From: Ectocarpus siliculosus
Lineage: Eukaryota; Sar; Phaeophyceae; Ectocarpales; Ectocarpaceae
NCBI GenBank assembly: GCA_000310025.1
Contig: FN649733.1
Location: 3,505,899-3,569,898, forward strand
Direction of reading: 5' to 3'
DNA length: 64,000 bases
Both the position numbers and the translations under genes were made by a program. The notes beneath the pieces were generated by a model that was given only the letters and a program-made list of their open reading frames with translations, did not search any database and was not told the origin of the DNA. Shown here piece by piece: positions 19,279-47,800 of this stretch (position 1 is its first letter; each line of letters starts with the position of its first letter).

Positions 19279-19306
19279 CCCTATCCCTAACCCGAACCCT
19301 CACCCC
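19279..19306. repeat. Degenerate interstitial telomere-like repeat
   Basis: Five imperfect hexamers in a row, ccctat ccctaa cccgaa ccctca cccc, close to the CCCTAA/TTAGGG telomere unit. It is short and degenerate, so it may be chance or a healed-break relic. Confidence 0.35.
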
Positions 19307-19409
19307 AAAGCACGGATTGAATACTTTATCCCATATGTTCGCCTCATCAATTTTGCTGCGTACACTTCTACTGGCTAGCTAGTTGGTCCCCCGTTCGGGG
19401 GGTTGCGAA

Positions 19410-22506: not shown

Positions 22507-24016
22507 ATTCTTCCTTGAATCTTACACGTTTCCGACAACTTTTCTTGGCGAGCAAGCGCGGCCTTTCTTTTGTGTCTGGAATTTTCCATTCTAGTTTGCT
22601 GGTTTTACTTGTTGTGACCACATAATTTTCGCGTCTGTGCACCTAGTCTTGAGGTTTGCTTGAGAGGACAAGGAAAGACATAGGAATTACGAAACCGGAA
22701 GAAAACGTCAACAGCGAACACGACTGCATCACCATCAACCATTAAGACATTGATGCGGGAATGCTCGAGCCAACCTCTCTGACACCGCCGCATTCCTATC
22801 ACGAGCAGTCTCATATCGCAGCCTCCGAAACACCAACCGTACACACCTAAAAGAGCGACGTATCCAACTTGCCGCATTGTTGGTTGCAAATGCAAATGCT
22901 TCACAAACCTCTGGGGAGCCTAACTCTCATCGCGAGGTGTCCCGTAAAGATCAACGCTGCGGCTACCAATTCACCACCCACACCCCTGCCTCCAAACAAA
23001 AGTAGCCGCGTAAGGTGAAGTTGGGGGGGAGACCATGGAAACGTAACATCCAAAACGAACAGCATGCGGCCTACAGTGATGAGCATTGCGAGTGGAAACT
23101 GCTTGCGTACGTCAAGCCTACAAATATTGAGGTACTTGATAGCAAACCTAACTACCAATCCACCTACGTAGCCGTCGCGGGCGTGTACACCAACCGTGGC
23201 GGGCCCAGATCAACCACGGTCGCGGAACAGTTCCCCGGACGGTGCAAGGGTTTGAAACAGGTCTCAACCTCACAAAACCTCTGCTTGGCATCTCCGTTGA
23301 AACGTCCGGAGTGGTGTGCAGCAGCCGGGAAAAAAAAAAACTGGGGGTGTTAGAGAAACTCAGAGAGTCAAGAGGAAAACAAGAACAAGATTGGAAGACT
23401 TTGGAATGGACAGAACGACGAAACATCCCGGATATGTGAAAAGAAAACCACGCGAGCGGGATGTTCAATAGCTAGAGTCTTGGTAATCACAGCTTGATGA
23501 AAACAAGGTTGCACGAACACCGGGAATTTTCGTCAGGCCATCAAAGATACACACGCGAGCGAAGGTTCGAATTCATCATGGATCTTTGACCCATCTCGGG
23601 GCTCGAATGGGGAAAACAAAAACACCCAACCTCATTCCAACCAAAACCCACTGACGCCTCTGACCACCTGCTCTCGCCACAAGGAAGGGGGGGGTCACAC
23701 GAGGGGCTCATGTCGAGGACTCGAAACAGAATGGTCGCAACCTACCTAGCACGACGTCGCTTTTTCGATGAGACAAATGACACTTCGATCAACACATGAC
23801 TCGTGAGCGATGGTATGCCATGAAACGGAGACAAAAAAAGACTGGTCAAAGGTCGGCCGGCACGAAAACGATGAAGACATTTCGAATTGAAGGTCAAAAA
23901 CACCATTGTGTCAAAACTCTGACTTTCTTTGTTACTCGTCGAGTCTCAACAGAATTTTTTCCAAAATAAATATGCCCCTGACACTCTGCCATCCCACCAG
24001 TCTATACTACTGGCAC

Positions 24017-27000
24017 CTAATCTATACTTCGTCCCGTCTCGACAACCGTGCTTGGGATGGCTCCGACCGTCGCGTCGTCGTCTTCGATTCGGATACCGCT
24101 GAGCCGGAGCTCTTCGGTTCTCGAAGCTCTGCTTTCGGGGCCTTCTTCTCGATCTTCGAGGCTTATGTTCTCGGTATCATCATCGGTAGCGAAAGAATCG
24201 CCCGAGTAGCTGTCATCACCCACGATAGACGTTGTCCCACTTGGCTCTTTCACGTTGCGGTTCCAGGTAGCAGACGTTCCCGGCCCGCGTTGGGTTCCCC
24301 CCTTCTCGAGACTCTCTGGTTCACCCCCCCTCCTACCTCCCGCGGCATTCTTGCTGTTGCCGCGTTCACGACAAGATCCAATTCGGCCGCGACATACATT
24401 GCCGCTCGTATCGCGGGATTCTCTGTTGCAGTTCGCGCCCCCGACCCCAGGTTCTTCCGTGACACAGTTTCTGCTACCTGACCGGTCATTAGGATGCCGT
24501 CTCGGAGGACGGGAGACCAATGCCGAATGTTCAGCGCTGCTTCCCAACGCCGCAGCATTTTTCGTGCTGACTGTCTTCGCCCATTGGAGGGCCTTAGAGC
24601 TACTCTCAGGGCCCGAGGTGGTGGCGCCGATACGTCTCGGGCCCCCGCCCCGTCCTCGGCGGGCGACGCCTGCCGGTGCTAGTGCCCGTGCCCATGCAGA
24701 GCGTGAAACACGAGGGGCACGCGTTGTAGGAGAGTGCGACTGCTGCTGACTATTTTCACGCAGGGGTGTTGCTGACTGTCGAGGATCACCGCGGCGGAAT
24801 AAACGGACGAGGGGGGGGGAGGGGTGATGAAACCTTGCAATTGATAACGTTTGAGCGATTAGAACGTTCGTCGGGCACTATCGCTGAAAGCAATGCATGC
24901 GGGTTCGATAACCGGGAAAGAATTCCACTGCCGATTCCCAGTATTGGGATGGCACGCTTAGTACGACTACCATGAATACGGGTCGATGATGTTCAATCAC
25001 ACGAACTAACAGAGAGGTAGACACTGGTGTGGAAAGGCATCTAAGGATGTCAATAATGGCCAGAAGACGGCGTATCGAAAGATTTTCACGTACAAATGTT
25101 TCTTGGTCGTTTGCAGTGACTATCATGCATGTTCTGCGGGAAAACGCTCACTTCGGAGCACAACCTCCAACTCAAGCGAGTTACCGTGCACAGGCATAAA
25201 TATCCCCCGTACGGCCGTGTGACCAGGATGTAGGTATCGACATGTTTACTGCAGAGAACCGTGTGAACATATCGAAAACGAGTCACCTTGGCACATCGGG
25301 CATTGCCAGCGCGCCTCGGCGATACGCCCCCCCCCCCAGGGTCTCCTATTCCGGTGCCACTGTACGCGGCGAAGAGACGACGGCTGCGGAACGCAACATT
25401 AGATCGGTCGTAGAAGTTCCACCCACTGGTACCTGTGTGTGCTGGCTGCTGTTGCTGCTGCCGCTGCCGCTGCCGTTGTTGCTTGTGTTCGTGCCGTGTT
25501 TGTATGTGTCTTTCACGTTCGTCTTGCCAAGCATTCATTGTTGAAGATTCATCGGCACCGACGCATTCATTAGAAGAATTGAAGCCGTCATCCGGGCCGA
25601 CACGATCTTCGTTACTATCACCATCACCGCCGCCACCACCACCACCATCGCCACCGCTACCACCATCGGCATCGCTTCCACAAGAGGTGTGCCGTAGGGC
25701 GCTGCTGGTAGTGGTTTCATTCGCCCTACCCTCGTTGTTGTTGCGAAAAGAAGTCTCAGTGGCCGACTTGCCGTTGCTCGGTGTTGCCATCCGCACCTCC
25801 TCATGGTACTTAGTCGCAACGCTGAACCCACCGGGCGGTTGGGTTGCGCTCACGATCTTGCGCGGAGAGTGTTGGAATACCTTCACGAAAATAGGAGGCA
25901 ACGGTCGACCCTTTGTCAAACTTGTCGTGTGAAACACCTATCCAGGCAAACCGCGACCGATGAAAACTGTTGACTTTGTTGTTCTGCACTCACTGGTTTT
26001 GAGCCCCCTTCGTCCACGGAAACATTCCCAACTCCATAAGGCAAAGCAAAACCGAACAAGAAATACAGGCTCCTGTCCTGTAAAAGACATCTAACACAAG
26101 GGCTACTAAGGTTCTGCCTCGTTGTAAGATTGTCTCTCAAAACGCTGTACGTACCTGCTGTCTGGGCGATAGGCCATCAGTTGTGCTTGGTCGATTGCCG
26201 AGTCTTTTACCGAGCGGTCGCTTGGGAACATATCCAAACTGCTTTATCGGCACCTCGCCCATGCGGCTTGGCCCGCCCCCGAAGCAGTTCTGCAAGCGTG
26301 TTCGGGTCTGAGAGGGTTCTGATGATGCTGATGCGACTCGTCGTTGGAAAGCTTTGATGTCTTCCGAAACTCGAGCTTTGCGTTGGCTATGGTTTGCAAG
26401 GCGATTCCAGAACACGCGGGTGATTGAGAGGTACCATTCAGGCTGAAGCCGGGGATGATGAGGTCAGTGTTGCACGTATCAAGCGCTGCCGTGACGAAAA
26501 AACACAAGACAAGATTAGCGTCGTGTACGATGGTAGTATACTCAATGTGGACCAGGCCGTTGCGCGAAGCATCGATCCTAGCATGTTGTCATTGAATACA
26601 CCTGTTTCGGAATCGACGTCAGACTCGGGAAACGTGAGCAGCGTTGCTGGAATAAAACCACCCTGCTGGTCGAGCCGTCTCGGGTTTGAGGTAGGACAAT
26701 TTCATCAACAGGTACAACACGCGGTAGCAGTGACCCTCGTCCTCACCGTTCTGACAGGGGCGGGGCGGAGGTCGTGACCCCCAGGCGGGCGGCTAGCTCA
26801 GTCATTTTTCTCTTCGCCGCATCATTCATCTCGCGGAGTCGCACATCTGTTGGAGGGTATTTGTTCAGGACACTCTTGAAATTCAGGACACTCTCGAAAG
26901 AGTGTTGAGATTTGATTTCTGTCAGCCCTGATATCCGTCCGACGGGTTCACTTGTTCTTCGCTTCGTATTTAACGCTATATCCTGCCGATTTCCAGCCAT

Positions 27001-30000
27001 AACAAACCGCAAAGCCACATTGCTCAACCACATTCTCCTTCATCCCACAATAAACGGCAGCAAGCATCTGGGCACCCACCCGAAGCGCCGGCGATTTCGA
27101 GGGCGCACTCTCTGCAGACACTGACTCTTCGCAACCGCAGCCTGAGATCTTCATTGCAGCGCACTGAGATTGCTTCCGCGCGGACTCCTGGGTGGAGCCT
27201 ATTGAGCACCCGAAAACATCGCTTGACTCCGATCCTGGCGATTGTTCTTCTCCCTGTGACTTCCGTTGAAAGGCGTGCAGGGTGGGGTTCACGTTATTCT
27301 CGTTGAACATTCTCTGACGCACTGGAGCAGACTCATTACCACTGTCGCTCATGCGGCGTCCGAAATAGCTACTACGAACAACGGTGACAACATCGTTTCG
27401 GGGTCGGATGCATCGCGGTGCGCGATAGCTCGATGTGTGGGATGCACCACCGCTGTCTACGTTTGTCGCTGAAAGCTGTGCCAAGGCCATCATGCAGCAC
27501 GTGTGAGCGCTCTCACCGTTGTTGGCAATCGAACCACAGTCGCCATTTCGTGCAGCGTGGCCACCGCGGAGTGTTTCAGACCAAGTACAAACATCCACCA
27601 CAATGCCGAGGCTTGTGTAGACTGTGCGGTCGAGTGGAGAGAACGTAGTGGACGCCAAGCCATGCAGCGATGGTGCCCGTGACGAGGATTCTTCCCCCGC
27701 AGCCACCTTATCGTTGCCGGTGCAGTCTCCCAAGTTCGCCACCGCATTGTTGCAATTCGCGCTTGGACAACACATTGCAGGGCCCGTGTTCTGCGTCATC
27801 ACTAGGTGGCTAGGGGCTATTCCGCGGACTTGTGTATCCCCGTGCATCGTGCTCGAGCCGTTGTTATCGGAACGAACACCACCTCGTATGCCGGAGCGAC
27901 CGCATCCAGGGCATACGAGCCCGTGGTGTACAGGCCTCCCGTACTCTTGCAGCGCCCCCAGCCCTCCTACACTTCCCTCTCGATCGGGGCTTATTGTGGT
28001 CGCGACGGTAGGTTCTACTCCTATCCCCAATACGTGTTGTAACCGGGCCTGGTTGTCGAGTCCTACGGAGTCATGGATGGGCAGTGTTGCGCTACCCGTG
28101 CCAGTTCGGCACAGCAGTGGTTCATTCGCGTCGATTCCAAGTGAAGGGCTCTGACCTGCTCCGATGGGGATATGAACAGATCAAGCCATGGAAAAAAAAA
28201 ACAGATGTGCGGCATGGTTGGTGGCCTTTTAGGGGTTGTGGTGCATGCGTTTATACCACACAATCCCCAGGCTGCCTTTTGTGCCACATTGTACCGGTAA
28301 CTCAGGCTCAAACCAAGAGGGGAGTGGAGGGTAAATATCCAATGCGGTTGCAAAACGGACCACGAAAAAAGTGCATCCAAACGTACGGCAAGCGCTCGTG
28401 TCAGTTGCACACGGAGCGCGTGATGGCTGAGAACTCGAAACTACATTTCATTTCGTATGGTGGCCCAGTTCTGCAGGACATTTTGCGTGTGGTACTACAT
28501 TCCCGATATGAAGGATGGGGTTCAAACCACGCAATACTGCAGCCAGGTGGGCATCTCTGCATCTGGGCTTAAGAGAACATGGTTCTGATTTTCAGATCTC
28601 TTCGGGAGGAGATGCAACATCGCACTTGGTGCATCTCTCGTTACATGTGACAGTTTGCAAAGACGACAGCGCTTTAGTTGGCTGTCATCGGTAAAACTGT
28701 AGTTGGTCTTACCCCATCGGGAGAGGAACATCAAAAAAGTCCGCCCGTCCTCCCCCTGACGGAAGTAACTCGTCGCCAACTTCGGCCGGAATTCTCCTCT
28801 TGTCACCTAGGTGTGGAAAAAAAAAAAGGGAGTCGCTGTGCGATTTTTCAAGGCATTTGTCGCCGTCGACAATTGTTTTCTAGCGGATACCCTATCTGTC
28901 ATTGTTGATACTGAAGGCATCTACTTGACGTGCCACGAGCAGCCTGTAATTAGAACGCGCAGTGAATTTCGCCATCTACCTAGAGAACCTCGGTGCACCA
29001 TCTTACGCTGGGCCCTAACCGGGTATTTCGGCTATTGCGCCTAAGACGACGGCTGCGCACTGATGACCTTCAATCTGATGTAACACACCAGCGAGACATG
29101 GTCCAATGCTGCGGTGCATGCCTCTACGACTGTCTGCCTCAGGGCGGGGCTCTTCATCGGCTCCCTCACGCTTCGAGGCCACAGCCCCCCCCTGCTGGAG
29201 GGCGGTGGTTCCTCGAATGTCACGCACCTGAAAAATGATAGTAGCAGATAGGGAGTGGTGCCGTCCTCCGGTTTCTCAATACACTGCGTAAAGAAGAAGT
29301 GCGCCCACGTCCTGTTGCGGAATAAGGCGCTAATACCTATGCGTCTTATAGTTGTCTACCACCTTGTCGCCAAATCGGTGCCGTTACAAGTTTCGATGTG
29401 CACGAACGTGGTCTATGTACGCCCAAACAAAGATTGACCTTCACACCTCGCTTTGTACTCCCCCAACCCCCTGCGGGAGATCAGATGTATGTTCGAACGC
29501 CTTTGGTCACACATGCAGTCTTTCGGGTATATCACGATGTCGGGCTTCATACATTCCAAGAAGTATCTCGCCTGATCTTCCGAGCACGTTCGTGTCGCCG
29601 CGCTTGTCATGTTTCTCGTGGAATCAGTCTGGATAGGGTCTTGTTAGCTTTATTGATGCTTCGAAACACCCGAGAGCAAACCCCACGTGCTGATAAGGGG
29701 GGGAAACATACGCCTATCCAAAGTACGATCTGATATTTGAACTCTATTTAGCAGCCGAAGTCAAAGCTACTCCCACCCTGAACAACGGAGAACTTCTTCT
29801 TCCTTGAGACCCTGGATAATCTTGGATAGAGCATGGGCGACGGATGGAAGAGATCATTCGATGGACTCCTTGCCGCACACTACATAGTTGTGCTTACCTG
29901 TGTTCACAGGGGAGGTCTTTGCGGTCGGCGCGAAAAACGTTTGTGCTCCGCTCCAGCAGACATCCGTTGTACACGCCCCCCGAACTGGACAACCTTCCCG

Positions 30001-33000
30001 CCGCCCCGAGCTCGAGCTCGGCGGTCTCTGCAGCAGAGGAGTGAGCGGTGGCATCAATATCTGTCCCTCCTGATCTCTACGACGTTTAGGAACAGACGGT
30101 CCGCAGGCAGATTTACCACGCGAGGTGGTCACCACTTTGCCTTACTCGGTTCAGGCCATCTCTTCTGTGCGTGACACAACACACTCATGCCAGGACTGCA
30201 AAATTCGTGGGTTAAACGTAGATCTGTCCTCGTTGCTTTCTTCACCCACACGGCGCGCTCATTGATCCCAAGTCAAATATTTTCCCAACGGTCATTATGT
30301 CCCAGTGTTCCCTTCGGAACGTCTCCTCAAGGTTAACTTCGATCGTTTCGCTTTGACACTCGTCATGGTACACACTATTCAGGCCGTAAGTACTACTCCA
30401 CTACTAGTGTTCACAGTGAACCCATGAGCATCTCATACAGCATAACATTTCAAGAGTACTATTCGTGCATGAGAAATCAACCGACGACATCTATCTTCTC
30501 GCACCTTTGACCGACTGTTTGGGCACGCTCTGGTCTGACAATCGCTGCCGGAACGGCGACCGATCCGGGGATCGTTCCCGGAAGCTCATTTCTATCTCCT
30601 CGACGCTGCCCAAACGAAACCTATGCCTTTCCACTACGTCCGGGTGAGCGCTTCGGACACGCACCGGGGTATGAGATGACAACGCACTCCAATGACACCT
30701 GCACACCACGAAGCACCGTTTGAGGTGTTCCAGATATTCGCGTTGTTTACTTCGAAGAGCGACACTAACAGGCAGCGAACATGGCATCTGAGGCATGCAC
30801 GCGAGTGAAATACTAGTGCTTGCTATCAGCGCTGGCATGCAATGTTCAACAGCAATTTGTAGTGAACAGATTGGGAATGGCGTATCAATGTCTATCGCAG
30901 TTGTTGTATGGCACCTTGGAGAGACTGACGAAGCAACATATATGCTGAATGACTGCGTAAACCACACTCACCATCCTCCACAGAACAGGAAAGTTATGTT
31001 CACTTCAACGAAGTTCCTTGCCAAATTCGTTGTTATGAAGGATCAACGCATATGCACACACCTCAGGGTCGAGTTTCTTGTTCCCGTGGGTCCAATGTAT
31101 TGCTGCAGCAAACACCAGCCGCCGCTATCCCTATCACCAGCCCCGGCCCCTGCAGCCGTCGCCGCCGCCTCAGACCGTTCGATGTGTCGTCGTGCGAATG
31201 TCTCCGTGTAGGTTCCAGTGCCGCCGTCGCTTCTAGCTTGCAGGTGGAGCAGAGACCCGCGACCAATCGTGTGGAAAGCATCCACTTCATCGCCATTAAA
31301 AGCTTCATTTCGCTGTTGTTTTCCTCCGGTGGCAGTTTCCACCACTGGAGGAACAGGGTGCTGGTGATGGTTGGATCCAAAGAGGAAATCATGAAGCTCT
31401 CGAGCAGTAAGGTGTCGAATAGCCGCGTCTTGCTGATTCTCCAGTTGGGGATGGTGAAACTTTGCATGTTGTGGCTGTGGACTGTCTGGCTTCTGCAAGT
31501 GTTGTTGAGACCTGGCATCTTCCATCCCTGGCTGTATGTCTCGTCCAACGCCGGCTGAGGTTACTGACACGATGCCATCATCGTTCCTCGGGATCCAGGA
31601 GATAATAACAGCTACAGGGTCACCATCCGTGCTTCCTTTACAAAACTCTCGGAAAATATTGGAAAACAGCGTATTGCTGGAGAGGAATGAAAAACACCCC
31701 AAGTACGGACAGCCGAGCAAAGAGTGTTTGATGAGACCGAGGCACGGTGATTGGGCGCGAGGAAATCCGTGAGATTCTTCCAGATAGAGAAAGACTCAGC
31801 GACGTCTTATGGGATAGATGGACTCCATCCTCTGTTGCTGGATCGCATACCTTCCTACACGCCAGACTTCCTACACATACGATCCGTCTAGAAGCACCCC
31901 CCACGAAGAAACCCAGGCACCCCGCGACAGTATTTGCTCCCGACACCCCCCCCCCCCCCTGCGCGCTCCCCGGTATACATCACCTAGTGAGTTTCCGTTT
32001 TACCCCTCCCTCCCGCTTAGATGTGAAGAACCAGTCTCCTGCCTCCCCCATGGAGTTGAATACCACCGTGTCCGGAATTGGGCAACGCGAAAATGGACAA
32101 CGCGATCTGCGGAAAGTTCGTGAGGGTTCCCAGTGATGGCACGAACCCACAAGCAAACGAAGGAAGTGACTCTGTGTAAATACAAACATTCGGGGCAACA
32201 GTTGAACTTGGTCTTGTTCGTGCGCAAGACGTGCAGTAGCAATTGTTGATCGATTCTCCCAGCATTCTTTGGTGATGCAAGAGCCGGTGTGATGGCCCTA
32301 CAATTGTTCCCTCGGGTACCACTCTAGGAGATTGCCTGAATTAACCGCGCTAATGAAGGAGCAGACTTACAGCAAGTCATGCGGAGAAATCGTCTGATGG
32401 GAAACAAAAACGGAGAACGGGATTGATGCAATCAACCCCGACGCCATCAAGCACATAAAAGGCCTCTTTGCGTGGGAACAGACAGAGGATTACACAATAA
32501 TGAAGGTCGCATTTGAGGGTGATCCTCTTTCCACACCTGTCTCGCTGCCAGAGAAGATGAAACAGCCGCGCAGGGTGAACGGTTTGATGCTGACGATTCC
32601 CGTGCTCCTCCGGTTTCGGTGTCCCGTCGCCCACCGTTTCTAACCCCGGCTCGTGCTGACCAATACCGACATCCACGTCGAGGGAACCACATCTGGAGTT
32701 TCGAGTGCTGCTGCAGTTGCTAAAAATTGTTTTACCGCTGTCCTTGTATGCGGCAGGAGCATCATGTAAGATTCCCGTTGTACGCGAAGTCGAAGAGAGG
32801 CGACTTGCCGGCCGCCCCCCGCGGTTTTTTGCCACGGTAGCGACTACTCTCGTTGCAGACGGCGCCAAAACCTCATCATCGAACCATGCTGTTACATCGT
32901 GTTTGAGCCCAGCGAGGCCGACCACCTTCCCCACTGAACCGGACCTACCACATGCAGAACGTTCAACGGGTGCAACAACGGGTGGGACCGTCGCGGCTCC

Positions 33001-36000
33001 CGCCGGAGAGCCCGGCTTACCGTTGGTGCGATCAGTGGGTGTAGAGTTTGCAGGGTCAGAAGGAGATGTTTCGCGCGCGGAGACCATCGATGCCGATGAA
33101 GGAAATGGCGCGACCCCTTGTGCCACGGGACGACCGGACACCGGGGAGCCTGGGTCCACCGTTTTATCTTTACCGTTCCCGGTCCGTGTTTGAGAGGCGG
33201 GACTTTTCAAGTGATCGTCATGGACCCGCGGCACCACAGCAGAAGACCTCACTTTACCGGTACCCTGCAGGGTACTTGCACGGTTGTGTCGCGGCCCTCT
33301 GCAGCCTATGCTACCCTGAGGTGACCGTGTTGGCGTGGGAGGCGACGAAGAAAAGGCTGACGTTGCGTTCGACACCACGCTCCTTCCCCCACTTGGAAGG
33401 TTCTTTCGCGATCTCTGATAGGCATTGGGACGTTGAGACCGGTTGTCGGTCAGGATGCTGCCATTGGGATTGACAGCTACACTGTCATCTTCCTCGAACG
33501 TGCCCGAGGAATATTCTTGGTCTCGCTTTCGTACGGCTAGATGATCACCACCAGCACCACCAGCATCACCCGGACCTTCAAGCCTCCTGCTGTTGCTGCT
33601 ACCGATGTGATCGGTATAAGTGGCGCCCGTGCGCTTGTGGTTTTTCCTCCCGACGCCTGCCTCACTGGCAGTAGCGTTTTTTCTATTGGTTTGGTTGCTC
33701 CCGGCATCATCTCTGGAACGCTTCCTACAACGGTTGTTGGGACCGTTGGAGATAAATTTCGAACTCTCTGTGTCCCCATCCTTCCTGGGAGTAACCCATT
33801 TACCGACGCTGGATCTAGAAAGGGGACCGCTCTCCTTGCTAGCCTTAAAAGCACTACCTGTTGAATTTTGGAGGACCGACGCTGCCACGTCTTGTACCGT
33901 GATTCCGGTTAATGTTTCGGCTTCGTCCGGCACGGAATTCTTCACGGGGGCGGCCTGGTTTTCGGCATTCAATGTTGCTTCTACCGCCAGTTCCACCCCG
34001 TTCAAAGCAGCACCACTGCCGACGCTGTTCATGGAACCAACCCCATCTTTAATGAGGCTGTTGTCGCTGGGGGTGAAGTTTAGGACCGCCGACGTTGTTA
34101 CGGAGTGCACCACCAACTCCGCCAGCGACTCTGTCTCGGACATCAAACCCAACTGTGTTGAGGAGGGCCGTTCGTCGGTAACTACCACTGATGCTGCCGC
34201 CGCCGGTTCCACCTCGTCCTCAATGATACCACTGCCGGTGCCGTTCATGGAACCATGCCCAGCCTTGATGAGACTGCTGTTGTCGGAGGTAGAACGTAGG
34301 AGTGCCGACTGTGTCACTGAATTCACAAGCAACTCCGCCAGAGACTCCGTCTCGGACATCAAAGATGACTTTATTGAGGCAGGAAGTTCGTGGGCATCCA
34401 CGACTGGTGCTGTCGTCGACGCCTCCAGCTCGTGCTCGACAGCAACATTGCCGGTGCCATGCATGGAGCCATGCCTAGTCTTGATAAGGCTGTTGTTGCT
34501 GGGTATAGAACGAAGGAGTGCCGAATTCGTCACCGAGTTCACAACCAACTCCGCCAGCGACTCTGTCTCGGACATCAAACCCGATTGTGTAGTGGCGGGC
34601 CGCTCGTGGGAATGCACTGCAACTGCTGGTGCTGCCGCCGCCGGTTCCACCTCGTACTCAATGATACCACTACCGGTGCCGTTCATGGAGCCATTCCCAG
34701 TCTTGATGAGACTGCTGCTGTCGGAGGCAGAGCCCAGGAGTGCCGACTTTGTCACTGAGTTCGCAACCAATTCCGCCAGAGACTCCATCTCGGACATCAA
34801 AACCGACTTTGTTGAGGCGGGCGGCTCGTGGGCATCCGCTTTTAGTGCTGCTGCCGACGCCTCCAGCTCGTGCTCGATAGGAAAATTGCCGGTACCGTGG
34901 ATGGAATTAGCCCCAGTCTTGATGAGGCTGTTGTTGCTGGGTATAGAACGCAGGAGTGCCGAACGCGTCACCGAGTTCACAACCAACTCTGCCAGTGACT
35001 CTGTCTCGGACATCAAACCCGATTGCGTCGTGGCAGGCCGTTCGTGGGAATGAACTGCAACTGCCGCCGCTGCTTCTACCGCCGGCTCCACCTCGTCCCC
35101 AACGATACAACTGCCGGCGCCGTTCATGGAGCCATTCCCAGTTTTGACGAGACTGCTGCTGTCGGAGGCAGAGCGTAGGAGTGCCGACTTTGTCACTGAG
35201 TTCACAACCAATTCCGCCAGGGACTCCGTCTCGGACATCAGAACAGACTTTGTTGCGGCGGGAAGTTCGTGGGCATCCGCTTTTAGTGCTACCGCCGACG
35301 CGTCCGCCTTGTCCTCAGCTTTGCTGTTGCCGGTGGCATTGGTGGAACCGACCCCGGTCGTGAAGAAGCTGCTGCTGCTGGAGATAGAGTGCAGGAGTGC
35401 TGAGTTTGTCACAACCAACTCCGCTAGCGACTCTGTCTCAGACATCAATCCCGACTTACTGGCGCTACGGTCGCACCCTGTTGCAGTAAAAGGTTGGTTG
35501 CGAGGGGGGTACTGTTCTGTTGCGCCGCCACTGCCCGAACCTTGTTGGACCGTCCGTGTCGCCAGGTGAGAGGGATCTTTGTTCGCGATATGGGAGTTGG
35601 ATGACGGTGAATATTGACCTCGCTCTTGGTCGTAGCGTTGTTGGTCTTGCCATCCATCCTTCGAGCTAGCTCGAACGAAAGCGGCCAGGTCCTATGTGCG
35701 ACATTGGTCGGTGTAGCGAACAGGCCAAATGGAGAGCGAAAACATTCGCGACAAACATAGGTTTGTTTCTGCATAAGTTTGTCACTTGTCGCAAAGATAG
35801 TCGCAACCGACTGCAGTGGGAGGCGACGCGGAATGATAAGACGGCGGGGCAAGAAGGCACGAGCAAACTACGGCGGTATTACTGTAGCTTGGTCATGGTT
35901 GGGAACATTCCCTGTGAGGTGCGCAATTCGTCATGGCCATTCTTAGCTCACGGTAATGTCGTTACAAATAGTAGCAAAGCTACCGGATATAAAATCTATT

Positions 36001-37749
36001 GGACCATGAGTATCCTTCTTGAACGGATACAAACGGAGAATAGTGGTGTGTGGTTGATGGCCGCTGAGTGTCAGCATACATCACGCACACCGCACGTGCG
36101 TGCTTCTTTCCAAGAAGTCGGAAGGGAGGCCGCCCCGATGATCATCACCCTGTCACACTGCCCCTAAAAATCCAGGACGCTTTCCGACAGGTCTGTGGTC
36201 CCTGTCTACTACGGGTTTCCTGGGCTCTGTCACACCATTAGACTTTCCCGCATACACCTTCATCTCCGGATGCTGCCAGCTTCAAGGCTTCTCCTCTTTT
36301 GATCTCATAAAACATATATTACGCCCCACTCGTGAACCTCTGCACAAGATCGACAGTCAGCTGCCTGTTTTTCATCGATCCAATAATGTGACGCGTTCAT
36401 TGGCAAAGCGATTCATTCTGGTTTTGACCTTGGATACATACCTACGAATCTTTTTTGCATTTTATTACTGCTTGGATCCAAACCGACTGTGCAACAGCAG
36501 TACCGTTTACCAAGCACCGACGAGGGCATGGCGTCCGCAATGGACGGGCCGTGGTTTGTATTGTAAAGTTACCTCTAGGCCTCTCGCACCGACTGTGGAT
36601 AGTGTGGAGTCAGACATGGCAGGTTGAATACATGTTCTTTCCCTCCTCTTGCTGCTCTTTGTCCTGCTCCTGCTGCTCCTCCTGCTGCTCTTTCTCCTCC
36701 TCCTCTTCCTCCTCCTCCTCCTCCTCCTCCTCCTCGTTCCCTGTTGGGCGCCGGCAACATTACAAGGGTTGTCTGCGTATGAAAGCCTCGCAGATGGACA
36801 GCGCTGGAAGGACCATGGCAAACGGCTTGAGTGGCATAAACTTGTCCCCTGCCTGTTCTAATCATGAGGGTCTCCATTGCCAGGAACAAGACAAATCCGA
36901 TGTTAATTTTCATCGTGATGGCAAGGACGGGAGCAACAAGTCAAGTGATTGTGACAGTTCTGGGAGTGCGTTTCCCACAACGCCAAGAGAGGGGTCGCAA
37001 TTTGTCTGGTTTGGAGATATGACTCCTCGAGAATCTTCAAAGACGAGGTGACATTAGGTACCTACCATGTGACTGTAGAAGCTTGATGGTTATGGCGGCA
37101 ACCCCATGCGCGGGAGCAAACACGACAAAGCGAGTGAGTGGTGGATGAACTCATACGAGTCGGGCGTCGATAGAGGCGTAGAACCAACGCGATCTGTGCG
37201 TCGACGCTGTCCGCTGGAAAGGAGGGCGCCGGAGCTGTCACACCGCATGCAAACCGTCTCCTTCCATGTTTAAACCCCCGAGGTACCGACCATCTCTCGA
37301 CTCGGCACTAGAGAGAGCCACGGCCCTTGTTTCCCGAAGAAACCTTCTCCTCGTGCCATACCATGTGCATTATATTGTGACTACTGTAGCAAGTCGTATA
37401 CAGTCGAGTGTTAGCTTGTGGGAAGGAGCCCTCGGAGTTGAAGGAAGAAAGGCTAGCTATAGTGATCGCTTGCACATTTGGAGAGCATTGGAGAGTCACC
37501 TCGTAATTACTACAATATAGAAGCTGAAGTGCACCTCCATAGAGCGGTGTCCAGGTGAGCAACGAGTGTCGGAGTCCTTGTGGATACCCTGGAAAAGCCT
37601 TGAAACATGTTGTGGGTGTCCATCAACATAGATACGTACTGCAGATGCGCAACCAAGAGGTGAAAGTTGTTCGCTTCCGTTTGCTTCTTTCCTGTGGGGG
37701 AGGCGACGGCCAGGGGTCCGAACGGGTCTCGGAGGAATTCGCCAAACAT
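24017..37749 (-). CDS. Large unrecognised gene, about 2,500 residues, with an N-terminal tandem-repeat region
   Basis: Proposed minus-strand exons: 37749-37588, 35691-32537, about 31700-31062, 30764-30505, 30134-29908, 29628-29447, 29227-29068, 28806-28713, 28155 to about 26960, 26927-26747, 26386-26155, 25937-25287, and a last one about 24480-24017. Phases agree at most junctions (for example 2/1, 1/2, 0/0 through 30764-28155 and 26747-25287). The start ATG at 37749 sits in ccaccATG. After the repeats the protein is basic with KRSRDD and HKRTG stretches (nuclear-like). Further on it has HPDVVERHRF, DQARYFLECMKPDIVIYP, FRPKLATSYFRQGEDGRTF, VCPGCGRSG, VRLREMNDAAKRKMTELA and acidic SIVGDDSYSGDSFATDDD. 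I recognise no domain. Uncertain points are the first exon, the borders of the exons near 31.7 and 26.95 kb, the 3' end, and whether all exons belong to one gene. Confidence 0.55.
32537..35691 (-). CDS. Large repeat-bearing exon of the minus-strand gene
   Basis: An uninterrupted 3.2-kb exon (1051 codons plus two bases) from acceptor acatag|gac (35692/35691) to donor gacag|gtgtgg (32537/32536); without that donor the frame stays open to 32377. It begins DLAAFVRASSKDGWQDQQ, enters the tandem repeats at residue 80, then runs into a long basic, Ser/Thr/Pro-rich tail with KWVTPRKDGD and RKRSRDD. Minus-strand coding is supported by the repeats: copies differ at third codon positions of this frame (aca/acg Thr, tcg/tct Ser) while the same changes alter residues in the opposite frame. 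Confidence 0.85.
33935..35448 (-). repeat. Seven tandem repeats of about 72 codons with alternating A/B types
   Basis: Each unit opens with MSETESLAELVVNSVT followed by SALL, then SLIKTG..GSMNGTG, an acidic patch and an Ala/Val-rich tail. Units 2, 4 and 6 share ASDSSS, EVEPAAAA and HERPATTQ; units 3 and 5 share IPSNNS, HELEAS and DAHE.PAS. The array therefore looks amplified as a two-unit block of about 145 codons. A degenerate eighth unit (PDEAETLTGITVQDVAASVL) follows. The amphipathic helix is the most conserved part. Confidence 0.85.
36666..36736. repeat. CTC/CTG trinucleotide microsatellite
   Basis: An imperfect run of ctc and ctg triplets inside the proposed first intron of the minus-strand gene. 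On the plus strand it would encode poly-Leu or poly-Ser, on the minus strand poly-Arg/Gly; I treat it as non-coding. Confidence 0.7.
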
Positions 37750-38886
37750 GGTGGGGTTGAGCCTACAATATATCCGCTTTGTGACGTTTCTACGTTTCTT
37801 ACCGTGGGCCGATCTTGTGAGTTTTTCGCAGGTTATTTTCTATCCCAGTTCACTATGTTGATTAGGGTGCAGTGCTTCGTATTTCCGCCCGTCTCTAGGG
37901 TATCCCTTGTAAATTATCTATCTGATTTGTCGTCTGAGTCAACACTGGACGAAAACGAAAAAAGAACAAATTGCTTTCGACTATTTCTTGAATACCCACT
38001 TTGGTCGCCCCGGTAGTCTACAGTGGTCATCCTCGCAGTAATAGCAGGTTGTGTGTTCAATTCTCTTCAGACTGTTTCTTTTTTCTTGCAACTTGTACTG
38101 CAAAGTAGAAGGAAGGCGATAACTTTCGTGAGTCACATGGTCGACGAGGGAAAGGGGCGGCTGGATCCCCTTCCCGAATGACAACTATATATTCGAGGCA
38201 AGCACAGCCCAGACCTGTGTATGTACATGTGTTGTAGCTAGTCTTGGCCGGAGAAAGGTAGGGGTAATACAAAAGCAAACATCCTGTATGGCATCCCTCC
38301 TGCGTGTTCCCGGCTGACACGTCTTGTACCGCAAGATGTGTAGCCTGGTGCCAGAATATGGGATGCATGAAGTGTAGGTGCACACATTCTTTGACCAGGA
38401 TCTTTATGGTCGGCAGGCCCCTTGTTGTGTAAATACTGTAATACCAGAGGGAGTGTACGCCATCACCTCTTACACGCAGTGCATGACGTGTAGCAGGAAA
38501 GGAGACCCGTTTGGGCATGGTTGCGAAGGGTTCGATGCATTGCGTTCATATCTCAGTTTTACGTTCCAAAGTTAAGTCTATGTCGCGAGCCCGACAGGTC
38601 GTTGCCTGGCAACCTCGTGTGAACCTGCGGATCGTCACGTCTCGATGCTGGCGGCATGTCAATTAAGTATTGGTTTGGTGCGGAGCGGTCCTCTCGAGCA
38701 GAAGCCTACCGCACCTGATCGATCCTCATCGTGTACTCACCTGGCGGCAACAACAGTTGGGCGCGTGTGTGGTGAGTGGCGATAGAAGGAGGGAGAGCCG
38801 CGGTTTCATCGGGGTGCGGCGTGTCTAAGGGTGCGTGAGCGGCGGAACTGGACGCGGCGGAACTGGGCCGTCGGCGAAACTCACAG

Positions 38887-41800
38887 AGCGGCAGTGCGAC
38901 AGCGCGCGCAGCGTCGCTTGCATGTCGCTTGCCGCTCGCGGTTCGCGCAGAGTTGGGAGAGCAAGCAGAGCTACACCACAAGGAAACCTGCAAGAAACAA
39001 TGCACACAAGAGGCAGGAAGCACGGATCTCACGGCTTCCAAGGAAGCTGTTGAACTGGGCGGCCCGGGCGTGGCAGGTGTGATGCGCTCCAACAAGGCGG
39101 CAGTGCATACGTAGCACATGTACATAGACTACTGCTGTACAGCAGTTCGCGATCCTCAGAAAAACATGAAATGAAGTACACGTCGAGTCTTCGTGAAATG
39201 TACCGCGCAGCTGTATGTCACGCCGTCTTCTCGTCCCATGCCCACACCCACAGATATTGTCTGTCTACTTGGTCTACTGTAGTCTATGCCGTCGTTGTAC
39301 ATCTCGTCAGGAGCAACATCGCCGTACACTCCCCCAACTCAGCACCATGTGCTTGTGTTCCACACTAGTGTAGTCTATTGCGTCGAATAGGATCGACAAC
39401 GTGGAGTCTAAGACACCCTGATGCACGAAGTGCTTGGCTGCGCACAGATTTCGGAATCTATGAGGCCAGTGCCAGCATTGTTGGATGGAAACTCCCTTTT
39501 CTCGACCGTTTTTTTTGCGGCATCACGCCACCCCCCCCCAATCCCAAATGGCTAGTGGCCAGTGAGGCAAAACGGCAGTTTGGCGGCATCTTCCGTGCCT
39601 CTTGTCCATGGTTCTGTCCGTTCTCTGTGATATAAACTATTGTCGTCACTGTTATTTTTCGTTGCATGATTGGCGCAGGGAGTCGATCATCCGTTGGATA
39701 TCGAAGATTCTTATGGACTTGAAAGATCCTCCTACAGAAATGAGACGTAATTACTTTTAATCAGAAAGGTGTGTCGATGTTTTCATCGTTTCGGCTACGT
39801 GTTTGGCACACGAACTCGGGAGGTGGACGGTCGTTCTTATCCTCGGAGGGAATCCAGGCTACGAGGTTCAAATATCAACAAGAGCCCAACAGGGAACTTT
39901 ACTGGGAACCCCGCCACCACGTTGCTTCTACCGTCGAAAACGTCGCGGCGTGGGAAGTTGTGGTGAGCACCACCTTCAACCGTCAACGGTAGACTAGGCA
40001 GGCTTTCCGATCATGCATTGGCGCGAGCTGGCAGTGCTCTCTTGCTCCGCGCGGCGCATTCGACTGTAGCAGTGACTTCCTCCTACTGTTGGGTGTCTGA
40101 GAAATATCACTTTGGTACGTTGTCCATACCGGGGTAAGAATTCCACGTGTTCTTTACTTCGTCGAGACGCCCCATGTTATAGTATGTCCTACCAATGCAT
40201 TCGCATGCTCAGCAGGTGGAATCTGCGGAGTCCGAGCCGCCACTTTCCCTGAATATCGCCCTTGGCGGCAATGGTACGCCCACTATAAAAACTGTTAAGG
40301 ATTTTTTCATTCAGAGCATGGTGGGAGAGGTGAGCCTAGATCAGAAAGTCACCGATGGCTGCAGACGACGGGTGGGCAACCATCGACAGACTCCAAACGC
40401 TGCTCTTGCCAAGCGGGTCCACCGATGTGCTCCGTTAGGGCTTATGGTCGTCGAGCCAGACTACGTGGAAGGTTTTTTACCCGCAACCTTAAGACCAAAA
40501 AGGTGAAAGCTCGAGTGCCTGGAAATCATGCCCACAGCAGTACAGACTTGGTACATTCAGGTTTTGAGAAGGCAAGTGTCCGTACATCTGGCTGGTGTGA
40601 GGAACCGCGAGCGACCGTGGCAGTGGCAGCACTAGTCAACGTTGGGCCGTCAATGCCAAACTAGGGGGGGGGGGGGAGAATAGCTCACAACCCACTTGCG
40701 CGAACTACCTTGACCACTCCCCCACATGACAGGCCACGGCGATCACTTGCTGCAAAGCTCAGGCTCCAACCGATACCGTTCGACGGGAACGCCGATTCCC
40801 TACAGCCTGCAACCGAACCTGGAGCTGGACGCGCCTCCTGTCAAAGTATTGTGGAATCGAAGCAACAGCGGCAAGACGCTTGCGAGGATCGTGGTGAGAG
40901 GCTTGGCGACGCGCCAAGCGGGTGCGGCATCGATGGTTCCCCTCACGGCACTGCCATTTGTAGCCCATCCCTCGACATACTGATGTACGAGTACCGAGGA
41001 CCAACGGCGTCAATATCGGAAAATCACCCGTTACAGTCAACACCGTCAGCCATGGACGTCAGAAGTCCTGCTTCCCCTTCGTTGGAGCCGATAGGTGGGC
41101 CGAAAGTGGCGAAAGGGCATGGTGACTCTGAAATGACATCGGCGATCCTTGGTAGCTCAAGCCGATGTAAACAAGTGACCAATGGGGGGACTACGATGGC
41201 GGCGTTAGAAGGTAAAGGCGGGAAGGCCCCAAATGGAAGCAACGAGGGAGCGATACTTCAAAGGAACACAAAAGACATGCGCGAAACTAGGGGAGGTGCT
41301 GCTATTAGGTCTGGCAGAGGGTTAGAGGCGGAGGAGGAGAACGAGGGAGAAAACGACCCGCATATCGCGGACGGTAGCGACGCTGGGGGACGTTTTGCTA
41401 CATGGCCAGCGTCAGAAATGATCAAAGGGGCGAGATCGATGTCGACGATGACAAAGCAGAACTTTAGAGACGTCGTAATACCGATGGCCCTTCCCGGGGA
41501 GGCACATCAGATGGACTTTGGAGCCGCCGCGAAAGCCGTGGTTCTGGCCTCAGGATCATCCCGGTTCAACGTTTCCAGGTACAATTTGGCTCGACAAATC
41601 TACAATTCTTGGCAACATCGTTCGCCACGACGCCGATACTCGTATTAAAACACCGGAATGCTGTCGGGGAAAGGTTGCGATAGACCGCTGTTCGCTCGTC
41701 ATGTACACCCGATGTTGTAGATGAAGGCTGTTGGCACAATGAAGGCGGTCGGCACGACGTTAACTAGGGAACGTGCAGCAACACAGTCATACTGGGCCGA

Positions 41801-44800
41801 CCTGCGGGGACAAACTCACTTGGTCAGCAATCTCCTTGATGTCGGCCGCAGTGTTTTCTCAAGAAAATCCTGACGGTCGTTTTACGGCGTAAACTTCGTG
41901 CCTGGCGAGCGGTTGAAACACCATGAAATAGCTCAACCCCCCCTGCGGCTCCGTCCCTGGCATACTCTGACGCCCACGTGGCGCGCTTGGTGGAGGTGGA
42001 CACACATGAACTACAAAAGTACGCCGTCGCGAGAGAGAGCCCAACGGACCAAGTACAATAACCCATCTCGCTGTCATGCCCCTGTTCTCAACTTGAATGT
42101 AGACGACAGTGTGTCACGCATTGTGTAGCGCCCCATTCGTTATTTTGCTGCACTTCTTTGAGACCTATGCATATTATTTGATGACTTTTTAGGTATGCTC
42201 GAGGGAAGGTGTTACCATCGAGAGTTGAGCTCCCTTGGAGGCCCCCGCTGAAACCGCCTTGGCGCACGAAGGATGGTGTCACGATAGAGGAACAGCAGCC
42301 GGATCAATCGGGGGAGAGGCAAGCATGGCAACTATATCGCCATCAGCAACAGCAGCACTGGGACCTACACCACGCGGCCCTTGAGGTAAAACTATCATCA
42401 GGTGGAACATTGCCGGACATTCGGTACTGCGCGGAAAAAAACAGCGATCGGGATTAGAAGAACTGGCATTAACACTCGGAGGCTTACGAGTGGGATCATT
42501 TACCGCCTTGCCGTCCTTCTCCCGAAGGGTGTTAAACAGGGGTTCACGCGAACGATACGCCATACGTCATTGGTCAGGCCAGAAAAACCTATATTACCTG
42601 AAAACCCCATCAGTCTGCTGTTTTGTCGCACAGTAATCCCGGCTGTCGTAATATCAAACTATTGATGTCGCAGATTCAGCGTGCGTGGCGGGGATACCTC
42701 GCTCGGGCGGCGTTCTGGACAGAAGGTGGCGTCGGCCTCCACGCGGTTGCCACCAGGATTCAACGGATCTTTCGGGGCTGGCGTGGGAAGGTGCTGCTGG
42801 GACTTTCGCCATGTTTTTTTCTCCAAGTGGTCATTGAAACAGAGACTTCAGAATGCTCCCCATCGTCGCGGCTTCTCCTAGTTCGCCTGCTTTGTTTTCT
42901 GGACACGCCTCCAATATTTTTGTCCATGATCTGAAGGTCTTCATTGGCATGAACCCGTGGTGCGAACCGCACGAGAGCGGGGTTGGTGTTGGTACAGCTT
43001 CCCCAATAGCACCGGGCGTCGCCAACGCGCCAACCATTTACCATCGTCGTATGGGCATTAACAGGTCCGTGCTGTGCAAGCCTTATTGGAGAAAAGAGCA
43101 CGAGCAGCTACGGTGATAACGGCTTTGGGTCGAGGGTTCCAAGGCCGGCAGGAGGCCAGGCGGCTACGCGTGAACTGGCACAACGCGGCAGCGGCGAAGA
43201 TCCAGAGGCACTTCCGAACACGTGCAGCAAGGAGGTACTGCAGTAAACTATGTGCATTCAATATCCAAGAAATCCGTTGGGGCGCGATGAACTCATAATC
43301 ATCAGTGACATAAGGCGCATGTCTCCTACTTTCCCGGCTTCAAAAGACGCGAAAATTGGGAGTAGCACTGGCACCCCTAAGCGTGGCATCTACGTCGTCT
43401 CCTGCGAACATAAATCACCGGGGCAAGTGTGGCGGCGGCCCTTCGATGGGTGGGGTACGCGTGCCTGAGCACTGCGTCTCTGGTGACCATGGATCTCTGC
43501 CCACAGAGTAGAATGCGTTCCGTACTCGTCGACATCTTCTAAGCGGATGGTCCAGTTTCCGGGCAACGTGAAAGCTATGACGAATCACAACTACAAAACG
43601 ACAGGTGGATGGAGCAGCTTCATCTCGTAGCGGCCATTCAGGGGGCGACGCGAGTCCAAGCTGTCTGGAGAGGTTCTGCCGCCAGGAGGCGATTCCGCGT
43701 GCTCCACTTAGACCAAACCATGGAAGAGAAGGTTCTCAAAGGTGTGGGGTGGCAGGTCAAGCACAATTAGCCTAGCTAGAACACAGTTACAGGGGGTCGC
43801 GTGGACACGAAGAAAAACTCGATGCAAGGTGATGCAGTGGGAAGTGGGCTTGTGCTGTACAGGAAGGGTCCAAGACTCGACTAGAAAACCCCATCGCTTG
43901 TGTTTCTCAAAACGACTTCCGGCCTATCTCACGAGCCGTTGGAGCAGGCCTACGCTGTCTCGTGCCTACGGGTACACAACACCCCATCCCTTTTGCGGCA
44001 GTCAGAACGTGATCGAGAGTGCTGGAGTTGACCCTAAGTCTCAGCAAGCGTAGGGACATGTGTGTTGCTTTCTGAAGTGAACCTGGTTCTCAACGTTGTA
44101 TTGGTGTTTCTTTCCATGCTTCTCCCCAAAACACTGTCCTCTGCTTGTCTCCCCTGAAAAAACTCGTCGCTGTACCACAGCTATATGCCTAGACTACACG
44201 GGACGAAAAGGGTGGACTAAGAACGCGCAGACGAGGACACCGAGACTTCGCTCAACATCGGTGTCGCTCTTCGGTGTGTCGGTCCTCATGCCGGCTCTTC
44301 CGGAGGGTTTTGCTGCACGTTTTGATGCCTCAAATCCAAACTGTTTGAAGGAAACATGTGCAAGTTGTGAAGGACAGAGTTCCCGACAAGAAAGCCGGAT
44401 GGCCGACGGAGAAACGACGCCCAACGAGGCTTCTCCCACAGGGGATATCGCTGCGTGCACACCACGACCTGGTACCCTTGCTGGCGGCGTGTTTGGGGGC
44501 GCCTTTCATTACCCGTGCCAGCCGCAGCAGGTTCTCCGCCCTTCTCCTAAGGGGTCGCCTCCCCGCTACCCCGCAAATGTAGACGGCGGAGTTCCAACAG
44601 AATGCAAGACGTGCGCGATTGGTAGTTCTGCTAGTCCAGGTTGCCGTGGCGGCAGAGGTCCTCCTGATGCTGGTGGCAGCAGCGGTGGTGGCGGGGATAG
44701 TGCTGCTGCTGATAGACCCGTCACCGCTGCGGCCCTTGCCATCTCTTGTGTCCGTGCTGGGCCAGTCGTCGAATCTCAAGCGTTACTGTCCGATCAGTAT

Positions 44801-47800
44801 TACGTCGGTTATGGACACTGTCTACTTGTCGGCGCGGGTAGTGGAGCCCTCGACGAGGCGGCGGAGGAAGCAATAGCAGAAGGTCGTTCGGGTGGAAACG
44901 GGGGCCCATCGACAATCAAAGACTTTGGTGGCGCCAGGGCTAGGGCACGGATCCGTGAAAAGAACAGAACCAGGGGATACGGCGATGCCCTGGAGGTTTT
45001 TCAGGAAGGGCTTCGGCGATTTCCGAGTTCGGCGGCCTTACTCTACGGGGCTTCTATAGCCATGCAGGCGAGTACACTGAGTTGGTGAGCATCAGTCATC
45101 TTTGTGGCCTTGGAAGCATGCAACGGTACGGTGCCGCCCAGTCCAGACCTACTCGAGCTTGGCGTACAACCGACACGAATTGGGGAAGACGTACCTTATC
45201 CTGAACGCACAGAACAGTATTGTGCGCTACGTTTCCAAATCATTGCGTAACTTTCGAACAGGCGACATGGTTCACCGACGGCCGTGGCTCCGCTCCAACA
45301 GAGGCCATGCTCGAAGCTTCTTTTTGTCTCCTCGCCGAAGCTTGGGCCCAGGATCCCGACAGGCGGTCCTACCAAGAGGTGGGAAATGCTCTGTGCTTGT
45401 AAAAGTCCAGAGGTGTCTTATCGCTTTGTCGTTCTCTGCTCTACTTCTCTCAATCGCTCTCTCCCTCTCTCTCTTTCTCTCTCTCTCGCGTCCTCTCGCT
45501 TCTCCTCTTTTCTCATACATGCGTGACTTTTTGATGACAATGCTTGCACATTGGCCACGATCAAGCTACAGGACCAAACGCTGAAAGACTTGTTTTCTCC
45601 TTGGATCGTGAAGAGCCCCTCATTCCATTCCTGCAACGTTGGTAGAGCTACACCAGATATTTGTACGAACGGACAATATTGGCGGCTGCATGTCACCGGC
45701 GGCGACGTGTTTATGTTATTGAACCATTCATCGAAACACAAAAAGTTTGTTCTGCATGTCACGTTTCGACGCTGGTGATCTTCAATGTTCGGCAAAGGTG
45801 GAAGCGTACTTCTTAGCCGCGACTAGGATAGCGAGGAGACGACTGTTGTTTGCAGAGACACAAGCAGCGGTTGCGCGAGACGCCGCGTTTGCTGAAAAGC
45901 GAAACGCCAAAGAGTTGAGCGCCAAAGGCGGTGCAAAGAACGGAGGCAAGGGCGCAAGCGGGGGGCTTACTCAAAGAATTGCGGGAGGATCGGGAGGCGA
46001 GAGAGAGCAACAGACCGATGACGAGCAGGAGGAGCAGAAAGACAAGAAGGTTCGCACCTCATGCTGTCTAACCCTATCTGTTAAAAACCTCTCAAGCTCC
46101 TGTCGATACACAATGGTTTCTACGGTAGCGTATATGCAGGAGTGAAGCAGCACGTGGAGATTAAACGAGCGACGTGCGCCACATTGAATGATCGTGTGAA
46201 AGAAAAGCGAGATTTGCTAGCGTGGCTTTTTCTGGCAGATGCGTCGTCACATGAAACCTCCTCAAAAGGCGCACAGCACTCACTGTGCCGATTGCCCTTG
46301 CTTTGATCCCTACCAGCAGGTGCAAGAGATTGGGCCCGAGGAAGAGGAGGACGAAGACGAGCCCGAGGACGTCACCGTTTGCAGAAAGGCAGCTGCGGTC
46401 GCCACGTTCCACGTCGCGCTTTGGAGCCAAATCGCGAACGGAAATCATGACATGGATCTAAGAAGGTACGGGATTGTTGGTGTCAGCTGGCATCTGCTTC
46501 GTAGGCGGACGGCTAATTCTTTCGGCCTCAAACGGAAATTGGCTTGGCTGGCATCCGCTCGTAGGCGGACGCCTTATCGTTGGGCCACGAACGAAATCGT
46601 TGACGTTCGCTGGCGTCCGCCTACGAAGCGGATGCCAGAGCAAGCCAACGATTTTCCCGTTTGAGTCCCTATGGACAAGCTCTCCGCCTACGAAGCGGAT
46701 GCCAACGAAAGCCAAGGATTTTTCCTCCAAGATTCGCGGCAGGCTAAATAGGACTCATGTCGAGGAGGGCTAAACGAAACTATTGATAACTCATACCTAT
46801 TATATGGTTTCAAACGAACATGGTGCGCACGTTTCAATATGACGAAAAGCAAAAGACGTAGTGGCGGAACTTGGAGAAAACGGCAGTGTTCGGAGCCTAA
46901 CAGCTCTACCATGTGAACTGTGGCAGTGAACAGAAACGGTAGCAGAAACCTCTGGCACTATTTCTACTTTGAAGCTGCGTAAACGTCGCTCCAGACACAA
47001 CCACCGCCCTTCAGTGGGGACTGGAAAGGGCATCCGGTTCGTGTTTTGTAGCCTATTTGCCCGCCTTGTTCCTAAGCAACAAAGAGAACACAAGGTCTTA
47101 CGTCGTGTACTCATGTAGCCCCCCGGGAGCGCTCTCAGCAGAATTTCGGGTTGGAGACATCAATCAGAGTAGTTCGCTTACCTTTTTTCCCCACCCAATG
47201 CCACTCTTTTACCCCGATGGCGAGCAGGTCGGAGACGCTGGCGGCATACCGACGCACGGAAAGGCTTTTCTCGATAGCAATGCAACTGGACACCAATTTT
47301 GAGCTGCCAGAGGTGTGTTTGTCTGTCAGTTGCAATTTGTTCAAACGCGTGGGTTGCGAACGGCCGCCGCCGATATTTGCTCCCCATCCTGGTCTCAATC
47401 CCATAGTCGCGCCGAACGAAAACATATTTTTAAATTCCGGAGTAACAACAAGCCTCCAAGGTGAGTATTCCGCGCAACATGAATGCGTATGAGCCGAAGA
47501 ACCAGACAGGATTTTCAGAGTGTGTTGTCCTGCCAACTGCCAGGTCGATTATGATCTGCTTGCCCTTCCTCTTGACCTAACAACAAACTGTTTCCGCGGA
47601 ACACCATTGTTTCTTACTCGAAAAATCACAGGTGACTCCCTACCGTTCTCGTATTGTGTGCTATGACAGATAAAAGCTTCCGAGCGTGTATTCAGCTCCT
47701 TCTATCGGGTACGATCAAGGTTGTTGACGACCCGTCCTCTGCGCCTCAAGCTCCCACCACACCCGGAACCTCCTACAGCCGAGAAGGGCGAGAGTACTGG

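What the first reader, a model, noticed from the sequence alone, without database searches (positions are those of the whole stretch)
33935..35448. Seven-unit protein repeat amplified as alternating A/B pairs
The repeats alternate between two subtypes, so the array seems to have grown by duplicating a two-unit block of about 435 bases. Differences between copies fall at third codon positions of the minus frame, which suggests selection on the protein. I recognise no matching family.
Basis: seen in the sequence. Interest (0 to 1): 0.75.

Follow-up and report, generated by a model that had tools for sequence, protein, structure and literature searches.

The report
Repeated helical motif in algal protein
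An unnamed protein, probably of a brown alga, carries seven copies and a worn eighth of a short conserved stretch that probably folds as a helix, spaced by freely changing linkers; it looks like a row of docking sites for an unknown partner and matched no family in the libraries searched.

Summary
The repeat is real. Seven units of 69-75 aa (window 33934-35457, minus strand) lie in one 1104-aa open frame (32377-35691), followed in register by a probable worn eighth core (33862-33927). U1-U6 alternate between two subtypes, with moderate tree support; U7 fits neither. So growth by a two-unit block of about 438 bases is supported for U1-U6 only.

The 'third codon position' claim needs correcting: third positions hold 477 of 1217 pairwise differences. 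Constraint sits in a 22-residue core (LMSETESLAELVVNSVTxSALL): codon-model omega is about 0.15 there and about 0.8 in the rest. Synonymous divergence is about equal in both, so selection, not recent copying, holds the core. AlphaFold makes the core a helix with modest confidence.

Searches of Pfam, NCBIfam, PDB sequences, viral contigs, prokaryote genomes and the window's own genome found no relative; no other eukaryote genomes were available.

Most likely: an orphan, largely disordered protein bearing an array of one short helical docking motif. Partner, transcription and exon ends are not shown. An AKAP-like reading was tested; 0 of 7 cores meet the strict pattern.

The parts
32377..35691 (-). 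Open frame of 1104 codons plus stop that holds the array; probably one large exon, ends undecided
   Evidence: chance of so long an open run about 3e-19 at this composition, codons taken as independent
35251..35457 (-). U1, subtype A (weakly), 69 aa; lacks three residues in mid-core
35026..35250 (-). U2, subtype B, 75 aa
34810..35025 (-). U3, subtype A, 72 aa
34588..34809 (-). U4, subtype B, 74 aa
34372..34587 (-). U5, subtype A, 72 aa
34156..34371 (-). U6, subtype B, 72 aa
33934..34155 (-). U7, neither subtype, 74 aa
33862..33927 (-). Probable worn eighth core (DEAETLTGITVQDVAASVLQNS), in register after U7
   Evidence: best of 497 windows, 0 of 3000 shuffles as high; not significant with the full unit profile

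Best explanation
An orphan, largely disordered protein carries seven (plus one worn) copies of one short motif of about 22 residues (L-M-S-E-T-E-S-L-A-E-L-V-V-N-S-V-T-x-S-A-L-L). Shown: the repeats, the long open frame, purifying selection on the motif and near-neutral change between motifs. Supported by a modest-confidence model: the motif is a helix. Inferred: each helix is a docking site that folds on a partner, so the array works as a multivalent scaffold that binds several copies of the partner or raises avidity, and the linkers only keep the sites apart. Also inferred: the array grew by duplication of a two-unit block (U1U2, U3U4, U5U6) beside older single units (U7 and the worn eighth). 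The closest copies already differ at about a fifth of synonymous sites, so no recent amplification or homogenisation is seen.
For: Core (columns 4-25) pN 0.061, pS 0.366; rest pN 0.304, pS 0.388; none of 20000 random column choices was as extreme. Codon-model likelihood, best kappa of a grid, peaks at omega about 0.15 for the core (-229.0 against -240.8 at omega 1) and about 0.8 for the rest (-885.9 against -886.6). Closest pairs U3-U5 and U4-U6: pS 0.21-0.22, dS 0.24-0.25. Probable worn eighth core in register. AlphaFold on the 7-row unit alignment: helix 7-27, mean pLDDT 77 in residues 11-20. Single-sequence run of the array: a helix on each of the seven cores, all at pLDDT below 50. Unit lengths vary from 207 to 225 bases, each a multiple of three (the units were cut by codons, so this restates the open frame). 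Block duplication.
Against: No transcript, ortholog or partner. The core's hydrophobic moment is not above permutations of its residues (P 0.10-0.49 in 8 of 8 copies). U1 lacks three residues in mid-core. Codon usage does not resemble kinase exons of the genome, and after the array the minus frame scores among the lowest of six. Both models also draw helices outside the cores at low confidence (52-62 of the unit; 482-500 of the array), so a drawn helix alone says little. The full-profile test of the eighth copy failed.
Confidence: 0.45

Rival explanations
1. The units form a folded structural repeat or coiled-coil-like assembly by packing on each other, not separate docking sites.
For: Regular spacing of 69-75 aa; each core drawn as a helix.
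Against: Linkers change nearly neutrally and are low-confidence in both models; pTM 0.22 and 0.24, no packing predicted with confidence. The alignments are too shallow to exclude it.
Confidence: 0.15
2. The array has no function of its own: an orphan or decaying open frame amplified by chance.
For: Linkers near neutral; weak codon usage; no relatives found; no transcript evidence.
Against: Core omega about 0.15 with core synonymous divergence as high as elsewhere; 1104 open codons.
Confidence: 0.15
3. [quoted passage not shown] a special case of the best explanation.
For: The genome encodes a RIIa match (1, over cut-off) and Dpy-30 matches (5, of which 4 over cut-off; two of the four cover complementary parts of the profile 1.4 kb apart and may be one gene). 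A loose AKAP-IS-like pattern fits 4 of 7 cores. Five helical turns are needed for PKA R-subunit binding and four for DPY-30 (passage of PMC12203939); the drawn helix of 21 residues is long enough.
Against: The strict pattern (recalled) is met by 0 of 7 unit cores; its 3 matches in the frame (two in a linker, one in the worn eighth core) compare with 1.83 expected in shuffles. The loose pattern was written after seeing the core and allows its threonine. Hydrophobic moment not significant.
Confidence: 0.1
4. The core is another short motif, such as a nuclear export signal or a helical activation/coactivator motif (LAELV, LAELL in U6).
For: By eye only: L-x-x-L-V/L steps after acidic residues; a basic stretch RCRKRSRDD follows the array. 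No test was run.
Against: No known pattern was tested or matched; the conserved part is longer than such motifs.
Confidence: 0.08
5. The coding strand is plus: open frames 33620-35053 and 35054-35569 read the array in antisense.
For: Pooled pN/pS is as low as in the minus frame (0.59 against 0.61), because third positions coincide. The codon bootstrap of the strand test leaves 7% of draws without a minus-strand advantage.
Against: One stop inside the array in that frame; in the core, changes silent only in the minus frame are seen at 44 of 559 opportunities and those silent only in the plus frame at 4 of 312 (with columns 1-22 as core 56 of 451 and 5 of 282). These rest on 4 and 1 variable columns.
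Confidence: 0.05

Closest known systems
Multivalent arrays of short helical docking motifs in disordered proteins (general kind; recalled)
   Same: Short conserved stretch, probably a helix, repeated with variable linkers
   Different: No catalogued motif matched; partner unknown
AKAP and other D/D-docking anchoring helices (AKAPs, RSP3; passages of PMC8339350 and PMC12203939)
   Same: Helix of similar length with hydrophobic steps; D/D-type domains are encoded in the genome
   Different: Strict pattern met by 0 of 7 cores, moment not significant; seven copies in one protein
Domain repeats that grow by several units at a time (Bjorklund et al. 2006, PMC1553488, abstract and outline seen)
   Same: Expansion by a multi-unit block
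   Different: The unit here is an unnamed 72-aa element without a Pfam match

Membership tests
AKAP / RII-anchoring helix | Strict RII-binding residue pattern (recalled) | tested here: not met
   0 of 7 unit cores; 3 matches in the whole frame (two in a linker, one in the worn eighth core), 1.83 expected in 300 shuffles
AKAP / RII-anchoring helix | Amphipathic helix | tested here: inconclusive
   Helix in models; hydrophobic moment not above permutations in 8 of 8 copies
AKAP / RII-anchoring helix | Binds a D/D domain | not testable with these tools
   D/D-type domains are encoded; binding not tested
Any Pfam-A family | Match over the curated cut-off | tested here: not met
   Whole frame: 3 matches, all under their cut-offs, best E 0.013; 0 families for 7 of 7 units
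Any NCBIfam family | Match at E up to 1 | tested here: not met
   0 families for the whole frame; the library is prokaryotic
Any protein with a solved structure | Sequence match in the PDB | tested here: not met
   Whole frame 0 matches at E up to 10; core profile 2 matches, best E 0.2, part of a spidroin

The most novel reading that the evidence does not exclude
The core is a new, lineage-specific helical docking module, and the protein is a multivalent scaffold that gathers seven or eight copies of one partner (possibly a D/D-domain dimer) in a brown alga.
Probability: 0.12. Interest if true: 0.55.

Novelty: new member of a known kind. Interest (0 to 1): 0.3.

Why it matters
If the core is a real docking helix, kept by selection while its linkers drift, the protein holds seven natural variants of one motif that show which residues matter, in a lineage where many genes are unnamed. 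As it stands it is one orphan repeat protein without a known partner, and growth of protein repeats by several units at a time is described as frequent (abstract of PMC1553488).

Tried and rejected
Family and structure searches led nowhere: Pfam on the frame, the units, the three minus-strand frames of 22001-37000 (E up to 0.01), 37001-46999 and 12101-22000, and the three plus-strand frames of 31001-40999 (E up to 0.05 in these three); NCBIfam; PDB sequences. PHROGs and PADLOC were not searched. No structure-library search was run, because model confidence is too low.

Relatives elsewhere: viral contigs with the array (8 pattern stretches, 0 relatives) and with the unit alignment (21, 0); prokaryotic genomes (26, 0). 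These scans start from a few short peptide patterns, one only. Own genome: the array (1 match, itself), the part after it (1, itself) and one 30-aa core (7, all in this array); these score only the first look's candidates (11, 9 and 7).

Codon usage did not settle the strand. In the array the minus frame scores -0.063 per codon and the open plus frame -0.089, but a frame with 16 stops scores best (-0.035); after the array the minus frame (-0.209) is fifth of six. Of 25 kinase loci fetched I used 18 (7 had an internal stop in the listed match); the script dropped 5 more because the stretch as I read it held a stop; 13 loci, 1622 codons, remained.

The eighth copy: full-profile HMMER score not significant (118 of 2000 shuffles as high); averaged-BLOSUM core score significant. 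Exon ends: acceptor-like sites inside the frame before the array at 35665 and 35477 and donor-like sites at 32736 and 32537 do not decide them. The first ATG of the frame is that of U1.

Full report
What is there. The minus strand of 32377-35691 is one open frame of 1104 aa; at the base composition of the stretch, codons taken as independent, so long a run has a chance of about 3e-19. Residues 79-586 are seven units of 69, 75, 72, 74, 72, 72 and 74 aa. Tandem Repeats Finder reports the array with periods of 216 (72% matches) and 438 bases (84% and 80% in two rows).

A and B. U2, U4 and U6 are 81-88% alike in DNA and U3 and U5 86%, against 70-76% between subtypes within U1-U6. In the tree of the seven units the A group has support 84/86 and the B group 72/86; none of 4 inner branches reached the strong mark. 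U7 is 62-67% from each other unit. The simplest history, inferred, is three A-B blocks beside an older U7 and a worn eighth copy. Synonymous distance (NG86) is 0.24-0.25 for U3-U5 and U4-U6, 0.32-0.38 for U2 with U4 and U6, and 0.50-0.85 for U1 with the other six, so the array is not a recent product.

The eighth copy. After U7, in register (71 residues from core to core), DEAETLTGITVQDVAASVLQNS scores 30.6 with an averaged BLOSUM core score, the best of 497 windows after the array; the second (15.8) overlaps it, the next elsewhere scores 8.2, and 0 of 3000 shuffles reach it. With a HMMER profile of the whole unit its score is not significant: 118 of 2000 shuffles are as high. I take it as a probable worn core.

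Selection. The statement about third positions is only weakly true: 402, 338 and 477 differences at positions 1, 2 and 3 over the 21 pairs of U1-U7. Split by place the contrast is sharp. In core columns 4-25 pS is 0.366 and pN 0.061; in the rest 0.388 and 0.304. None of 20000 random choices of as many columns reached it; columns are treated as exchangeable, and I chose the core after seeing the alignment. A codon model on a fixed tree, with kappa taken from a grid, peaks near omega 0.15 in the core and near 0.8 in the rest; over all columns the free estimate is 0.615. At omega 1 the core loses 11.8 log units and the rest 0.7. Pairs of units are not independent, so the likelihoods are the better guide.

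Which strand. Third positions of the two open frames coincide, so the plus frame gives about the same pooled ratio (0.59 against 0.61). For the minus strand speak the 1104 open codons, the one stop of the plus frame inside the array and, in the core, 44 of 559 opportunities for changes silent only in the minus frame against 4 of 312 for those silent only in the plus frame (with columns 1-22 taken as core 56 of 451 and 5 of 282). A bootstrap over codons leaves 7% of draws without a difference, and the events fall in 4 and 1 columns. In the rest of the unit the two rates are 61 of 876 and 133 of 1232, the other way round, without a clear difference by the same bootstrap. I give the plus strand 5%.

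Structure. AlphaFold on the seven-row unit alignment makes residues 7-27 a helix (mean pLDDT 77 in residues 11-20); 39 of 72 residues, nearly all after residue 32, are below 50, and a second, low-confidence helix is drawn at 52-62. The single-sequence run of the array puts a helix on each of the seven cores, part of one on the worn core and one elsewhere (482-500), with 535 of 535 residues below pLDDT 50. The core begins with S-E-T-E (D-E-A-E in the eighth copy), which would suit a helix cap (recalled rule). The hydrophobic moment at 100 degrees is not above that of permuted cores (P 0.10-0.49), so the helix is not strongly amphipathic.

Relatives. None found: Pfam, NCBIfam, PDB sequences, viral contigs, prokaryote genomes, own genome. 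No collection of eukaryote genomes was available, so this does not show that the protein is confined to one species.

How it probably works. A short, probably helical motif kept by selection and repeated with drifting linkers, in a frame rich in Ser, Ala and Gly (160, 118 and 94 of 1104), is what a multivalent docking array would look like. I tested one kind of helix that works so, the D/D-anchoring helix. The genome has one RIIa match over its cut-off and five Dpy-30 matches, four over the cut-off, two of these possibly exons of one gene. The core fits a loose AKAP-IS-like pattern in 4 of 7 units, but I wrote that pattern after seeing the core; the strict pattern fits 0 of 7. Both are recalled. 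I keep it as a rival at 10%.

What is known. [quoted passage not shown] I saw no paper on this repeat in the listings; they cover open-licence papers by words, not by sequence, so absence from print is not shown.

Noticed in passing
window 21255-21609 and 22136-22506: A segment occurs twice (blastn alignment of 371 columns, 95% identity), starts about 880 bases apart; minus-strand frames there read alike.
   Followed up: partly
window 56099-56382: A separate tandem array, period 61 bases, 4.7 copies, partly inside an open plus frame (56180-56737).
   Followed up: no
window 44081-45088: An open plus frame of 335 aa ends in a stretch that reads like a TPR helix pair, by eye only.
   Followed up: no
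G000 (C30, C191, C476 and others): 150 listed EsV_1_7_cys matches, many of them side by side within one frame.
   Followed up: no
window 24017-24877, minus strand: Open frame with GDDSYSGDSFATDDD, which resembles a YSxDF-type stretch of ciliary proteins (recalled, not tested).
   Followed up: no
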